Of a stretch of DNA of 37,299 nt, positions 1-37,299 are shown one piece after another. The position numbers were made by a program, and so were the translations under genes. The notes below the pieces were generated by a model. The model had not been told where the DNA came from, made no database searches, and saw only the letters and a list, made by a program, of their open reading frames with translations. Within the stretch, counting starts at the first letter, position 1. Every line of letters starts with the position of its first letter. The stretch is from a virus. The DNA lies in the IMG/VR virus record IMGVR_UViG_3300037882_000560, positions 1 through 37,299 of that record, one strand, 5' to 3'.

Positions 1-99
1 CAGAACCACGCAAAACGGTTGTTAAAACTGCGGTTTACAGCGCCAACCAACTAGCCACGGCTGAAGCAGCGGTCAAAGTTGTCTCAGAAATGACCGATA
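1..99. repeat. terminal direct repeat (copy 1)
   Basis: These 99 bases are identical to the last 99 bases of the window (37201-37299). An exact repeat at both ends of an assembled contig is what a graph assembler gives when it closes a circular or circularly permuted genome. The length of 99 equals a common assembly k-mer size. The reading frame of the gene crossing the join is preserved. I read it as a sign of circularity or completeness rather than as a biological terminal repeat. Confidence 0.95.
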
Positions 100-212
100 A
101 AGAAAAGTTGCGTGAACTGTGGACCAGCAGCGCAGAGATTCTTGATGCTCCAATCAACGGAACAACTCTTAAAGATGTCATTAACGCCCGCGTTGCGGAG
201 TTAAGTGCCTAA
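1..212 (+). CDS. single-strand annealing-type recombination protein, 3' part (begins at 36852)
   Basis: C-terminal portion of the gene that starts at 36852, in the frame whose codons begin at base 3. Because the unique length (37,200) is a multiple of three, the frame carries across the join with no stop. The tail is Lys/Ala/Glu-rich and probably a flexible or helical C-terminus. The stop TAA shares its last A with the ATG of the next gene, as expected in a translationally coupled phage operon. Confidence 0.6.
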   Translation, partial: EPRKTVVKTAVYSANQLATAEAAVKVVSEMTDKEKLRELWTSSAEILDAPINGTTLKDVINARVAELSA

Positions 213-583
213 TGGATGAGTTACAACTTCCGCTAACTCCTTACGCTGGAACATCGGGCTGGTCAGGATCACAAAGCAGCCACGATCGCGCAGTTGAAGA
301 GGACAATGATGGCTCTACCAAAGGCCGTCAAAATGTCACTCTACGGTTAATCAAAGCATCAGGAACTTACGGAATGACCTGGAAGGAACTGGCAGATAAT
401 ACTGGATGGCATCATGGCCAGGCTTCGGGCGTTCTTTCAGTCTTGCACAAAGAAGGATTGATTGAACGCCTGACGGAACGCCGAGGCAAGTGCGCCATTT
501 ACATCGGATTGAACTCGGTCCACGGCCGTAAAACCTCCGTTCGCAAAGTGAAATGTTGTAAGCATTGTGGAGGTGCAATATGA
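212..583 (+). CDS. winged helix-turn-helix DNA-binding protein
   Basis: A 123-residue protein. Residues about 40-100 read as a MarR/PadR-like winged helix: a helical start (NVTLRLIKASG), a recognition segment with WKELADNTGWHHGQASGVLSVLHKEGLIERL, then a short beta wing. The C-terminus ends in CCKHCGG, a half zinc-knuckle. Similar small wHTH proteins are frequent in actinophage early regions and are presumed to bind DNA as regulators or replication accessories. It overlaps both neighbours by one to four bases, so it is co-translated with the annealing protein. No target site can be assigned. Confidence 0.6.
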   Translation: MDELQLPLTPYAGTSGWSGSQSSHDRAVEEDNDGSTKGRQNVTLRLIKASGTYGMTWKELADNTGWHHGQASGVLSVLHKEGLIERLTERRGKCAIYIGLNSVHGRKTSVRKVKCCKHCGGAI

Positions 584-4521: not shown

Positions 4522-4665
4522 TTGTCCGAATGTGGATAAAACTCACAGCAAAACACGCGTAAAAATAGTCAAAATAAGTGCCACAAATACTTCCATTTCT
4601 TTCTGATGTACGGGATATTAGTTACATAAGGGCGAAAGCCCCCCAAACAGAAAGAAGGCAAAAAC
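4522..4665. promoter_or_regulatory. intergenic regulatory block, candidate origin region
   Basis: A 144-base non-coding gap between rusA and the small-gene cluster. It contains TGTGGATAA at 4531-4539, the exact complement of the DnaA box TTATCCACA, then an A/T-rich stretch at about 4555-4627. A TATTAG hexamer at 4616-4621 could be a -10. The leader hairpin follows at 4630. Lying just downstream of the initiator and resolvase genes, it is the best candidate for an origin as well as a promoter region. Only one good DnaA box is seen, so the origin call is weak. Confidence 0.45.
4591..4660 (+). promoter_or_regulatory. shared promoter/leader element, copy A
   Basis: TTCCATTTCT begins at 4591. Exactly 39 bases later is the hairpin GGGC-GAAA-GCCC (4630-4641, GNRA loop), then a C-run, AAAC and GAAAGAAGG, which serves as the ribosome-binding site for ATG 4666. 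The same set, with the box at the same distance, occurs at 36780-36847 ahead of the annealing gene. If transcription starts just before GGGC, the TTCCA box sits near -35 and the hairpin caps the 5' end of the mRNA. Start sites are not visible from sequence alone. Confidence 0.55.
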
Positions 4666-4947
4666 ATGGCAACAGCCACAAAGATCCAAGCAGGAGATGC
4701 ACCAAACTTTGCAGAGCCAAAATCAAATGTCGGTGCAACAGAGGATTATTGCATTCAGTGCGGTCGCAAAGTTGGTGCGAACCCTTGGATGGTTGAAGTG
4801 ATCAATGGCGGTGACATCAGACTTCAAGATGGAACCGAAGCGATCCACGATGGCGGTTACATGGGTTGGTGGCCAATTGGAAACGAGTGCGCAAAATCAT
4901 TTGCACCGAACCTTCTTTTCAAGGCTCCAAAGAAGGAGGTGAAGTAA
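4666..4947 (+). CDS. hypothetical protein, first of the small-gene cluster (93 aa)
   Basis: Begins MATATKIQAGDAPNF after the leader hairpin, with GAAGG seven bases upstream. A CIQCGRKVG knuckle at 29-37 with Cys75 further on suggests metal binding. The middle is rich in Gly, Trp and Asp (GGYMGWWPIG). No family recognised. It heads an operon of about ten tiny genes joined by overlaps, and being first behind a strong leader it is probably expressed early and highly. Confidence 0.65.
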   Translation: MATATKIQAGDAPNFAEPKSNVGATEDYCIQCGRKVGANPWMVEVINGGDIRLQDGTEAIHDGGYMGWWPIGNECAKSFAPNLLFKAPKKEVK

Positions 4948-8289: not shown

Positions 8290-9480
8290 ATGGAAGTAAA
8301 GAGAAGGCTGATAGCAGATTTACAACTGGACCCTGGTAATGCACGCCTCCACTCACAAAAGAACCTGGATGCGATCAAAGCAAGCCTTACAAAGTTTGGC
8401 CAGCGCAAACCAATTGTGATCACAGGCGAAGGATTAGTGCTTGCGGGCAACGGCACGCTGGAAGCGGCCAAAAGCCTCGGCTGGGATCACATCGATGTAA
8501 CTGTCACACCTGCCGATTGGGATCTAAATACCGCTCGTGCTTATGCTTTGGCGGATAATCGCACCGCAGAGTTGGCTGAATGGGATGAGAATGTCCTGGC
8601 AAAGCAACTGTTGGAACTTATCGATGTGGACTTTGATATTGAAGCGCTTGGTTTTGAATTGCCCGAGCCTGAAATCCAACCCGAACCTGATGATGCGCCA
8701 ACAATCGAGGAAGTTGAACACCGAACCAAACTGGGTCAGTTGTGGAAGTTGGGCGATCACTTGCTTTATTGCGGTGACTCAACCGAAGAGGCAACCTTTA
8801 CCCGCTTGATGGGGGATGAGAAGGCGCACCTTATTTGGACAGACCCACCGTGGAATGTGAACTACGGCGCGGTAGATGAAGGCAACCAACAAGGTTACAA
8901 AGTCAGAACGATCATGAATGACCACATGAACGAGGGTCAGTGGGATGAGTTCGTGGGTCAGTTCTGCGCAACCTTAAAAGAACATAGCGAGCCTGGCGCA
9001 CCAATTTATCTTGTGATGAGCGCCCAGGAATGGCCAGTTATTGACCGCAATCTGCGTGAGGTTGGCTTTCATTGGAGTAGCACCGTGATTTGGGCCAAAG
9101 ATCGCTTGGTTTTATCCCGCAAGGATTACCACACGCAATATGAGCCGATTTGGTATGGCTGGAACGCTGATGCGGCACGCCTGGCCATCGTTGAGGATCG
9201 AAAGCAATCTGACCTTTGGGAGATCGAACGCCCCAGCCGATCAGAACTACACCCGACCATGAAGCCAATCGAACTGGTACAAAAGTCCGTGGTCAATTCA
9301 TCAAAGCCAGGCGACATTGTCTTGGACTCCTTTGGGGGATCAGGCAGCACGCTTATCGCTTGCGAACAGACCAACCGCAAGTGTCGAATGGTGGAGTTAG
9401 ACCCGCAATACTGTGATGTAATTATTGCAAGGTGGGAAAAGTTTACGGGTAAGACGGCAGAACTTTTGCCTGGAAGTTGA
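8290..9480 (+). CDS. ParB-domain/DNA methyltransferase fusion
   Basis: A 396-residue protein. Residues 1-120 form a ParB/sulfiredoxin-like domain (LQLDPGNARLHSQKNLDAIKASLTKFGQRKPIVI... LAGNGTLEAAKSLGW). An acidic linker at 124-142 follows. Residues 148-390 are an amino-methyltransferase: catalytic DPPW at 185-188 and the SAM-binding FGGSGST at 348-354, with HPTMKPIEL before it, so a beta-type N6-adenine or N4-cytosine enzyme. The fusion is common in phages and plasmids, where it guards DNA from restriction or marks it. No restriction partner is present. GAAGGCGAG gives the SD. The target site cannot be read from sequence. Confidence 0.9.
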   Translation: MEVKRRLIADLQLDPGNARLHSQKNLDAIKASLTKFGQRKPIVITGEGLVLAGNGTLEAAKSLGWDHIDVTVTPADWDLNTARAYALADNRTAELAEWDENVLAKQLLELIDVDFDIEALGFELPEPEIQPEPDDAPTIEEVEHRTKLGQLWKLGDHLLYCGDSTEEATFTRLMGDEKAHLIWTDPPWNVNYGAVDEGNQQGYKVRTIMNDHMNEGQWDEFVGQFCATLKEHSEPGAPIYLVMSAQEWPVIDRNLREVGFHWSSTVIWAKDRLVLSRKDYHTQYEPIWYGWNADAARLAIVEDRKQSDLWEIERPSRSELHPTMKPIELVQKSVVNSSKPGDIVLDSFGGSGSTLIACEQTNRKCRMVELDPQYCDVIIARWEKFTGKTAELLPGS

Positions 9481-9487
9481 GCAAAAG

Positions 9488-10135
9488 ATGGAGGAAGCCG
9501 AGCAAAACATTACGGAAGTAGTCGAACCCACCCCTGAGGAGAAGGCTGCGGAACTTGAGGCCAAAGAAGCAAAGGTCCTGGAACTGCGTAGAGCGGGTTT
9601 TACTTTTCAACGGATAGCCGAAGAGGTCGGGTACGCAACGCCTTCAGGAGCGCAGCGAGCGCTTGAACGAATTATGACGCGCAATGTTCCCCAAGCGCCC
9701 GAGGAGTTTCGCTGGCAAGAGTTGGACCGTTTAGATCGGATGCAGGTTGCTTTGTGGCCCAGGGCTATGAAAGGTGATGATCGTGCTATCGGTACGATTG
9801 TGCGTTTGATGGAAAGAAGGGCAAGATTGGTGGGGATAGATGCTCCACAGCGTATCCAAGCAGAGGTGGTGAATTATGACGGAAACCGAGACATCGATGG
9901 AGACATTGAACGCATCGTCAATATCCTCCGAGGAGTGGATAGCAGCGAGCCGCTGGAAGTGGAAAGTGGAACAAGCGAGAGCGGAACAACTGCCACCGCA
10001 GGGCGAGTGGAAGACCTGGCTATTGATGGCGGGTCGCGGAGCGGGCAAGACGAGGACAGCAGCGGAGTGGTTAGCGTGGGAAGCGATCCAAAACCCGATG
10101 ACGCGCTGGGCGATAGTAGCCCCAACATTCGGTGA
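9488..10135 (+). CDS. terS: terminase small subunit
   Basis: A 215-residue protein starting at ATG 9488 just after the methyltransferase. An acidic N-terminus is followed by a helix-turn-helix (KVLELRRAGFTFQRIAEEVGYATPSGAQRALERI) and a helical oligomerisation region ending near RARLVGIDAPQRIQAEV. This order is typical of small terminases, which recognise pac/cos DNA. The last 86 residues, rich in Ser, Gly, Glu and Asp, are encoded in the same DNA as the first 87 codons of the large subunit in another frame. Confidence 0.75.
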   Translation: MEEAEQNITEVVEPTPEEKAAELEAKEAKVLELRRAGFTFQRIAEEVGYATPSGAQRALERIMTRNVPQAPEEFRWQELDRLDRMQVALWPRAMKGDDRAIGTIVRLMERRARLVGIDAPQRIQAEVVNYDGNRDIDGDIERIVNILRGVDSSEPLEVESGTSESGTTATAGRVEDLAIDGGSRSGQDEDSSGVVSVGSDPKPDDALGDSSPNIR

Positions 10136-36422: not shown

Positions 36423-36497
36423 GGCTTCGGTCGTATCCACAGCGTCATCAACAGAATAGGAATGTTCTTTATAACATTGTCCACATTCTTTGCACAT
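36414..36497 (-). CDS. very small Cys-knuckle protein on the minus strand (27 aa)
   Basis: On the minus strand ATG 36497 shares its A with the TAA of the 36497-36706 gene. The product begins MCKECGQCYKEH, with three Cys and a His close together, and runs to TAG at 36414. Overlaps the end of the phosphoesterase gene by nine bases. Supported by the stop-start overlap and Cys motif only. Confidence 0.4.
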   Translation of the reverse strand: MCKECGQCYKEHSYSVDDAVDTTEASI

Positions 36498-36706
36498 TAA
36501 TCATCCTCATAATCGTCACCATAATCGCTGGTGATTAACCTCATGTCGGCAATGTCCACGCCGTTTTCTTTTGCCTTATCCATTGCTTCTTTGAATGTGG
36601 AAAGGCAACGGTTGGTGAGATCGGAAACCATGTCGGGATACTGGGCATCGGTTCCCAATTCCACGGCAAGGCCACCTAGTCGGATCGAGATTTGTGAATA
36701 AGCCAT
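36497..36706 (-). CDS. hypothetical protein, the main minus-strand gene (69 aa)
   Basis: Start ATG at 36706 with AAGGAGGT at six-base spacing on the minus strand. The product begins MAYSQISIRLGGLAVELGTD, has a long helix (LTNRCLSTFKEAMDKAKENG) and an acidic end (DYGDDYEDD). No HTH, so not an evident repressor. It is transcribed away from the early operon, which suggests separate control. Confidence 0.7.
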   Translation of the reverse strand: MAYSQISIRLGGLAVELGTDAQYPDMVSDLTNRCLSTFKEAMDKAKENGVDIADMRLITSDYGDDYEDD

Positions 36707-36851
36707 GGGAGACCTCCTTGCTGAAATTATGCCTGTAATGCCGCCTGTAATGAATCCGCCGCGCCCGACCGAGGGGTCCTTCCAATTCCTGGGCCTTTGT
36801 GCCAACCTTGGCTTACCAGGGCGAAAGCCCCCAAACTGAAAGGAAGGCCCC
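36707..36851. promoter_or_regulatory. divergent intergenic region with direct repeats and promoters
   Basis: A 145-base gap between the minus gene and the annealing gene. Contains GCCTGTAATG twice (36731-36740 and 36743-36752, 12-base period). On the minus strand TTCATT, 17 bp, CATAAT makes a reasonable promoter for the minus gene, and the repeats lie in its spacer, where a repressor could block it. The plus-strand promoter/leader copy B occupies the other end. No gene is seen within it. Confidence 0.5.
36780..36847 (+). promoter_or_regulatory. shared promoter/leader element, copy B
   Basis: TTCCAATTCC begins at 36780, and 39 bases later comes GGGC-GAAA-GCCC (36819-36830), then CC, AAAC and GAAAGGAAGG, followed four bases on by the ATG of the annealing gene. 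Same arrangement as copy A at 4591-4660, with matching box-to-hairpin distance, although the DNA between is unalike. Confidence 0.55.
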
Positions 36852-37299
36852 ATGGCAGAGAAATACAGCCTTGAGGATTACGAAACGGTCGAATCGCGTC
36901 TGCGCCGACTATATGAAAAGTACCCAGCCGCTCGATTGCTTACAGACCTGGTTTATCAGGATGAGCGCCGCTTTATATGCAAGTCGTTCTTGTACCTAGA
37001 TCCCAAAGACCCAACACCGCACTCAACAGGTTTTGCCGAGGAGATTGTTGGCGCTGGCTTTGTAAATAAAACCTCGGCCCTCGAAAACTGCGAAACTTCC
37101 AGCATTGGCCGTTGTTTAAGTAACTCGGTCCTTTGCCTTGGCGCACCAGTTGGCAAGCGCCCATCGCAAGAAGAGATGCAAAAGGTCGAGCGCTACAAAT
37201 CAGAACCACGCAAAACGGTTGTTAAAACTGCGGTTTACAGCGCCAACCAACTAGCCACGGCTGAAGCAGCGGTCAAAGTTGTCTCAGAAATGACCGATA
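36852..37299 (+). CDS. single-strand annealing-type recombination protein, 5' part (continues at base 1)
   Basis: This is the N-terminal part of a 186-residue protein; the rest is at 1-212 after joining the circle at 37200. Start ATG has the SD GGAAGG four bases upstream. Residues 75-90 carry the block ALENCETSSIGRCLS, a variant of the AxENxETSAIGRAL signature seen in many actinophage proteins annotated as Erf/Sak-like single-strand annealing proteins or left hypothetical. That assignment is from remembered family resemblance. The context supports it: a RecB/Cas4-like nuclease, RusA and SSB follow, forming a plausible annealing-based recombination and replication module. It is the first gene of the early operon, directly behind a leader hairpin shared with the 4666 operon. 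It could also be another ssDNA-binding accessory protein. Confidence 0.6.
   Translation, partial: MAEKYSLEDYETVESRLRRLYEKYPAARLLTDLVYQDERRFICKSFLYLDPKDPTPHSTGFAEEIVGAGFVNKTSALENCETSSIGRCLSNSVLCLGAPVGKRPSQEEMQKVERYKSEPRKTVVKTAVYSANQLATAEAAVKVVSEMTD
37201..37299. repeat. terminal direct repeat (copy 2)
   Basis: Exact copy of bases 1-99. Removing one copy gives a unique circle of 37,200 bp. Both copies lie in the same reading frame of the putative annealing protein gene, so they are the same piece of DNA seen twice. Confidence 0.95.

What the first reader, a model, noticed from the sequence alone, without database searches (positions are those of the whole stretch)
4591..4660. A two-part promoter/leader element shared by two early operons
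At 4591 and at 36780 the phage has the same set: TTCCA(T/A)TTC-type box, exactly 39 bases to an identical hairpin GGGC-GAAA-GCCC, then a C-run, AAAC, GAAAG(G)AAGG and the ATG. The 29 bases between box and hairpin are mostly different, so this is not just a recent copy. Constant spacing suggests a box near -35 and an mRNA starting at the hairpin. It may be a phage-specific promoter, perhaps read by WhiB-modified host polymerase, with a 5' cap hairpin that stabilises mRNA or controls translation. Start-associated repeats in some mycobacteriophages (cluster K) are a partial parallel.
Basis: partly seen in the sequence, partly recalled or inferred. Interest (0 to 1): 0.8.

Follow-up and report, generated by a model that had tools for sequence, protein, structure and literature searches.

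The report
Phage promoter with covarying leader hairpin
A freshwater virus of bacteria, and many of its relatives, start their early gene transcripts with the same module: a promoter followed at a fixed distance by a tiny RNA hairpin whose letters change in matched pairs between viruses, so the folded shape at the front of the message is what evolution preserves, probably to protect or tag viral messages.

Summary
Both copies are at the stated positions, and box-to-hairpin spacing is 39 in each. The element is not limited to this phage. Searches by protein, by exact pattern and by flank recovered the same module in dozens of metagenomic, mostly WhiB-encoding, presumed actinophage contigs, often 2-4 copies per phage and always just upstream of a start codon. 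The region between box and hairpin is not featureless. It carries a sigma70-type -10 (NANNNT) ending 10-11 nt before the stem in 47 of 57 nonredundant copies (9.5 expected), with a TTG/TTC -35 at 16-18 nt spacing in 36 (8.3 expected). Some relatives have perfect TTGACA-18-TAxxxT. The hairpin covaries: stems include GGGC/GCCC, GGTTCC/GGAACC, GGAGGTC/GATCTCC, GGGAAGC/GCTTCCC and GCCC/GGGC, and differ between copies within one phage. G-U pairs occur but no A-C mismatches, so RNA pairing is the conserved thing. Best reading: host-sigma-type promoters whose transcripts start about 4 nt before a hairpin, giving 5'-proximal hairpin leaders that likely protect phage mRNA. Transcript starts and function are inferred. 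A WhiB-modified polymerase is not specifically supported. Distinct from cluster K SAS repeats and absent from Rfam: an undescribed, widespread version of a known kind of leader.

The parts
4591..4596 (+). -35-like box of copy 1 (TTCCAT; CTTCCA if read from 4590), 17/18 nt from the -10
   Evidence: Position and register shared with TTGACA in relatives
4614..4619 (+). -10-like hexamer GATATT of copy 1, ending 10 nt before the stem
   Evidence: NANNNT at this register in 47/57 nonredundant copies
4626..4629 (+). predicted transcript 5' end and unpaired tail (ATAA), start inferred near 4626
   Evidence: inference from -10 distance and conserved A at -4 and -1 from the stem
4630..4641 (+). hairpin GGGC-GAAA-GCCC, copy 1
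   Evidence: covariation in relatives
4642..4658 (+). linker (CCCAAACA) and Shine-Dalgarno GAAAGAAGG (4650-4658), ATG at 4666
   Evidence: hairpin end to start codon 18-25 nt in all copies
4666..4947 (+). first gene of the copy-1 operon (93 aa, no family match)
36731..36751 (+). two GCCTGTAAT repeats (12-nt period) upstream of the copy-2 promoter, candidate regulator site
36780..36785 (+). -35-like box of copy 2 (TTCCAA; CTTCCA from 36779)
36800..36808 (+). extended -10-like TGC + CAACCT of copy 2, ending 10 nt before the stem
36815..36818 (+). predicted transcript 5' end and unpaired tail (ACCA), start inferred near 36815
   Evidence: inference
36819..36830 (+). hairpin GGGC-GAAA-GCCC, copy 2
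   Evidence: covariation in relatives
36831..36847 (+). linker and Shine-Dalgarno GAAAGGAAGG (36838-36847), ATG at 36852
36852..37298 (+). first gene of the copy-2 operon (PHROG 11717, unknown function; continues across the 99-bp end repeat into 3-212)

Best explanation
Each copy is a transcription and translation start cassette. A promoter of the ordinary -35/-10 kind, weak in the window (TTCCAN-17-NANNNT, with a TGN extension in copy 2), is read by host RNA polymerase, possibly helped by a phage regulator. It starts an mRNA about 4 nt before a short GC-rich stem-loop. The mRNA therefore begins 5'-A(C/A)CA-hairpin-CCAAAC-SD-AUG. The hairpin at the 5' end works mainly through its shape. It most likely shields the 5' end from host 5'-end-dependent decay (pyrophosphohydrolase/RNase E or RNase J) and keeps the nearby ribosome site open. 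Shown: element, register, spread, covariation. Inferred: transcript start, stabilising role, and which polymerase form reads it.
For: Two exact copies with constant spacing. Same module in relatives found by exact pattern and upstream of protein homologues down to about 53% identity. 2-4 copies per phage in most, all on the strand of and 18-25 nt before a start codon. -10 register 47/57 against 9.5 expected (most seen in 2000 shuffles 21); -35 at 16-18 nt 36/57 against 8.3 (most seen 15). Perfect TTGACA-18-TAxxxT-10-stem in L061, L111 and L115. 17 of 18 sites chosen with the stem interior free form a perfect stem and precede an ORF. Covariation score 0.525 against 0.104 shuffled and at most 0.116 slid. 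G-U 13, A-C 0 among interior pairs. Stems and loops differ between copies within one phage, e.g. L062, L061, L107, L189, which favours shape over a sequence-specific binding site. 5'-terminal stem-loops are known to stabilise bacterial mRNA (PMC3997798), and a 5' hairpin stabilises T4 gene 32 mRNA (PMC8948821).
Against: No transcript data. A 4-nt unpaired tail may still admit RppH-type enzymes: the B. subtilis enzyme needs at least 2 unpaired nt and prefers 3 or more. In the window's own subgroup the hairpin is nearly invariant (GGGC-GNAA-GCCC), which would also fit a sequence-specific binder. The -35/-10 of the window copies are poor matches to the sigma70 consensus, and the simple promoter scan missed copy 1. 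Single-sequence folding is not exceptional.
Confidence: 0.62

Rival explanations
1. The hairpin is the binding site of a phage (or host) RNA-binding protein that acts on these transcripts, e.g. an antiterminator of the lambda N/nut type or a translational regulator; position at the 5' end is secondary.
For: Two early operons with the same hairpin and a GNRA loop in the window's group (44 of 44 window-type rows GAAA or GGAA) recall lambda boxB. Flanks AACA/ACCA and CCAAAC are conserved even where stems differ.
Against: Stem and loop sequences differ between copies in one phage. Loops range from 3 to 6 nt and are not GNRA across the family. No boxA-like motif was seen by eye; not scanned systematically.
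Confidence: 0.2
2. The inverted repeat is a DNA operator (or an extruded DNA hairpin promoter as in phage N4) at the transcription start, not an RNA structure.
For: It sits at the predicted start site, where repressor operators lie. GCGAAAGC is, from general knowledge, an unusually stable DNA hairpin. N4 promoters tolerate stem changes that keep the hairpin (PMC4496689).
Against: G-U pairs on the mRNA-sense strand (13) but no A-C (0) among interior pairs; a DNA palindrome would show both. Odd and even loop lengths 3-6. Stem sequence changes freely between copies in one phage. N4 promoters need the virion polymerase; no such gene was found, the largest protein being the 1013-aa tape measure. 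N4 hairpins lie upstream of the start, whereas here they lie downstream of -35/-10.
Confidence: 0.08
3. A phage-specific promoter class: phage WhiB or another regulator changes host polymerase so that it reads CTTCCA...TGNNANNNT and the CGTAATCT spacer element; the hairpin is an accessory.
For: Window-group -10s depart from TANNNT in the same way (C/G first, TGN extension in many copies). GTAAT at fixed -29 to -31 from the stem in 22 of 57 copies and repeated upstream of copy 2. WhiB in 14 of 15 element-bearing records.
Against: Relatives with the same leader have consensus TTGACA/TANNNT promoters. WhiB is also usual in relatives without a detected element (8 of 11). No sigma factor over cut-off in 9 records.
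Confidence: 0.1

Closest known systems
5'-terminal mRNA-stabilising stem-loops (E. coli ompA/papA leaders; T4 gene 32 5' leader; T7 gene 10 leader from general knowledge)
   Same: Short stem-loop at or next to the mRNA 5' end, shortly before the Shine-Dalgarno; shape matters more than sequence
   Different: Here a repeated, promoter-coupled cassette with a fixed -10-to-stem distance across many phages; stabilisation not shown
Start-associated sequences (SAS/ESAS) of cluster K mycobacteriophages (PMC3203893)
   Same: Repeated element before start codons of non-structural genes in actinophages, outer GGG...CCC, one orientation
   Different: SAS is one non-palindromic 13-mer 3-7 nt from the start and contains the SD; ESAS inverted repeats lack pairing support. 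Here the hairpin is 18-25 nt upstream, covaries, and no SAS consensus beyond chance is in the window
lambda nutL/nutR boxB hairpins
   Same: Small hairpin in leaders of two early operons, GNRA-like loop in the window group
   Different: No boxA recognised; stems and loops vary within one phage
Phage N4 vRNAP hairpin promoters (PMC4496689)
   Same: Repeated early promoters with short hairpins tolerant of stem changes
   Different: DNA hairpin centred at -11 read by a virion polymerase; here downstream of a -35/-10 promoter and no such polymerase
CUUCGG hairpins in phage intergenic regions (Tuerk et al. 1988, cited in PMC8948821)
   Same: Stable small hairpins recurring between phage genes, one stabilising T4 gene 32 mRNA
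   Different: Defined by the loop; here the loop is free and the place in the leader is fixed

Membership tests
sigma70-type promoter | -10 (NANNNT) and -35 at 16-18 nt spacing in constant register | tested here: met
   47/57 and 36/57 copies against 9.5 and 8.3 expected; consensus TTGACA/TAxxxT in L061, L111, L115; window copies only weak matches
5'-terminal mRNA-stabilising stem-loop | RNA stem-loop conserved by compensatory change | tested here: met
5'-terminal mRNA-stabilising stem-loop | Stem within a few nt of the transcript 5' end | tested here: inconclusive
   predicted 4 nt from -10 position; no 5'-end data
5'-terminal mRNA-stabilising stem-loop | Longer mRNA half-life with the stem intact | not testable with these tools
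   needs an experiment
Cluster K SAS/ESAS | GGGATAGGAGCCC 3-7 nt from the start codon | tested here: not met
   only 2 matches with 2-3 mismatches, fewer than chance; hairpin 18-25 nt from start
lambda nut site | boxB identical or nearly so within a phage, with boxA | tested here: not met
   stems and loops differ within one phage; boxA looked for by eye only
N4 vRNAP promoter | Virion RNA polymerase gene and hairpin upstream of the start | tested here: not met
   no such gene found; hairpin downstream of -35/-10
Intrinsic terminator or attenuator | Stem followed by a T-run | tested here: not met
   stem followed by C-run and AAAC; copy 1 not in the terminator list
Known RNA family (Rfam 15) | Match at gathering score | tested here: not met
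   none in window or six relatives; best local hit E 3.4
WhiB-dependent promoter | Activity dependent on WhiB bound to sigmaA | not testable with these tools
   co-occurrence not specific

The most novel reading that the evidence does not exclude
A whole group of freshwater actinophages marks its own early mRNAs with a structural 5' tag: a hairpin of free sequence at a fixed place after a dedicated promoter class (CGTAATCT spacer element, shifted -10). Phage messages are thereby spared, or preferentially translated, while host mRNA is decayed.
Probability: 0.2. Interest if true: 0.75.

Novelty: new variant of a known kind. Interest (0 to 1): 0.52.

Why it matters
Promoters and leaders of the abundant phages of freshwater actinobacteria are hardly known, and few of these phages are in culture. 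A covarying leader hairpin at a fixed register gives a way to find their transcription units from sequence alone, a predicted transcript start to test, and a set of natural variants for asking whether a 5' stem alone protects mRNA in actinobacteria, where mRNA decay is much less worked out than in E. coli.

Tried and rejected
MAFFT on unpadded sequences misaligned stems of different length (A1), and the model R1 alignment forced GGGC into the pair columns, so it showed no covariation. Padded rows (A4) were used instead. A very loose flank pattern was uninformative (1974 sites). Single-sequence folding z-scores do not single the hairpin out. The exact pattern in 84,980 bacterial and archaeal genomes gave 8 hits, none in Actinobacteria, taken as chance, so the leader does not look borrowed from the host. 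Blast of the element against isolated phages gave nothing convincing. Rfam: nothing. Terminator, SAS, N4 promoter and nut site considered and rejected as above. A sigma factor of the phage's own was not found.

Full report
WHAT IS THERE. The window is a phage genome with a 99-bp terminal direct repeat (1-99 = 37201-37299), so it is very likely complete and circularly permuted. The 12-mer GGGCGAAAGCCC is present twice, and no other site has up to two mismatches. The box plus hairpin pattern at 37-41 nt spacing is present twice, against 0.07 expected. Between box and hairpin, 9 of 30 bases agree. Copy 2 heads an operon with a PHROG-11717 protein, a weak HTH protein, an exonuclease, WhiB, a replication initiator and RusA. 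Copy 1 heads small genes followed by HNH, SSB, a methyltransferase and terminase. 'Early' is inferred from these functions.

RELATIVES. An exact scan of IMG/VR for hairpin + AAAC + GAAAG gave 28 loci, nearly all with the full module and some with three copies. Homologues of the first gene of copy 2, found by protein alone, have the module upstream down to about 53% identity, often with a different stem. Homologues of the copy-1 gene led to further copies nearby. A covariance model found 96 matches in 92 sources. Complete-size relatives carry 1-4 copies (one match pair in G002 lies close to its two ends and may be one copy of a circular genome). Every accepted copy is on the strand of its gene with 18-25 nt from hairpin end to start codon.

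UNBIASED TESTS OF THE HAIRPIN. To avoid choosing sites because they pair, sites were chosen on flanks with the stem interior left free. Pattern CGTAATCT..AACAGG..CCCCAA gave 18 unique sites, of which 17 form a perfect stem directly after AACA and precede an ORF with a ribosome site; the one failure has no ORF. A broader flank pattern over all loci gave 60 nonredundant sites, 46 with perfect stems; most of the others look unrelated upstream. Interior pairs: 136 Watson-Crick, 13 G-U, 0 A-C, 5 other mismatches. Perfect stems were scored with G-U allowed; A-C was admitted only in stems of at least 5 bp with one mismatch, so the comparison is indicative rather than exact. On a hand-padded alignment of 40 distinct elements, 6 of 7 pairs change on both sides. 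The covariation score is 0.525 against 0.104 for shuffled 3' letters and at most 0.116 for slid registers. Rows of that alignment were partly collected because they pair, so and 18/83 are the cleaner evidence. Copies within one phage differ: L062 has GGTTCC-gactg-GGAACC, GAGACC-agcaa-GGTCTC and GGGAGC-aaag-GTTCCC; L189 has GGATTC-ataa-GAATCC and GGGAAGC-acgaa-GCTTCCC.

PROMOTER. Anchored on the stem, 57 elements nonredundant at 75% identity have NANNNT ending 10 or 11 nt before it in 47 cases (shuffled mean 9.5, maximum 21 in 2000), and TTG/TTC 16-18 nt further upstream in 36 (shuffled mean 8.3, maximum 15). Box and hexamer shift together by one base relative to the stem, as a promoter would. 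L061 and L111/L115 have TTGACA-18-TAxxxT-10-stem. The window copies read TTCCAT-17-GATATT-10-stem and TTCCAA-17-CAACCT-10-stem, the latter with TGC before the hexamer. With usual start distances (general knowledge), transcription begins near the conserved A four bases before the stem. A GTAAT core at -29 to -31 from the stem in 22 of 57, and two GCCTGTAAT repeats upstream of copy 2, suggest a regulator site that is not explained here.

FUNCTION. Because sequence is free and shape is kept, at a place next to the predicted 5' end and clear of the SD (fold), the most likely role is protection of the 5' end. Reviews state that RNase E and RppH need single-stranded 5' ends and that 5' structures stabilise mRNA (PMC3997798). 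T4 gene 32 has a stabilising 5' hairpin (PMC8948821). This step is inference. A 4-nt tail is borderline for blocking RppH-type enzymes. The near-invariance of GGGC-GNAA-GCCC in the window's own subgroup leaves a binding protein possible.

WHIB AND POLYMERASE. WhiB is in 14 of 15 element-bearing records and 8 of 11 relatives without a detected element (some records are fragments and the element-less status rests on locus pieces). No sigma region 4 over cut-off was found in nine records. So the WhiB idea is neither needed nor excluded.

KNOWN KINDS. Not SAS (PMC3203893), not an Rfam family, not a terminator, not an N4-type promoter. It works like a 5'-terminal stabilising leader; membership in that kind depends on experiments. 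I found no description of this element in the papers searched, which cover open-licence papers only.

Noticed in passing
window 36731-36751: Two GCCTGTAAT repeats with 12-nt period between the divergent 69-aa gene and the copy-2 promoter, conserved in close relatives; the same GTAAT core recurs inside many family promoters as CGTAATCT.
   Followed up: partly
window 36497-36706 (-): Divergent 69-aa gene (MAYSQISIRLGG...) facing the copy-2 promoter, no Pfam match; its region is conserved in relatives.
   Followed up: partly
window 212-583: Second gene of the copy-2 operon has a weak MarR-type helix-turn-helix match (below cut-off); candidate regulator of the GTAAT sites.
   Followed up: no
window 1-99 and 37201-37299: 99-bp exact terminal direct repeat: the record is very likely a complete, circularly permuted genome of 37.2 kb.
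   Followed up: partly
L060 just upstream of 5501: Intrinsic-terminator-like hairpin with T-run directly before the module, fitting a new transcription unit starting there.
   Followed up: no
window 9425-10132: ORF matching a PHROG named 'RNase E' overlaps the terminase ORF; no Pfam match, so the name is doubtful.
   Followed up: partly
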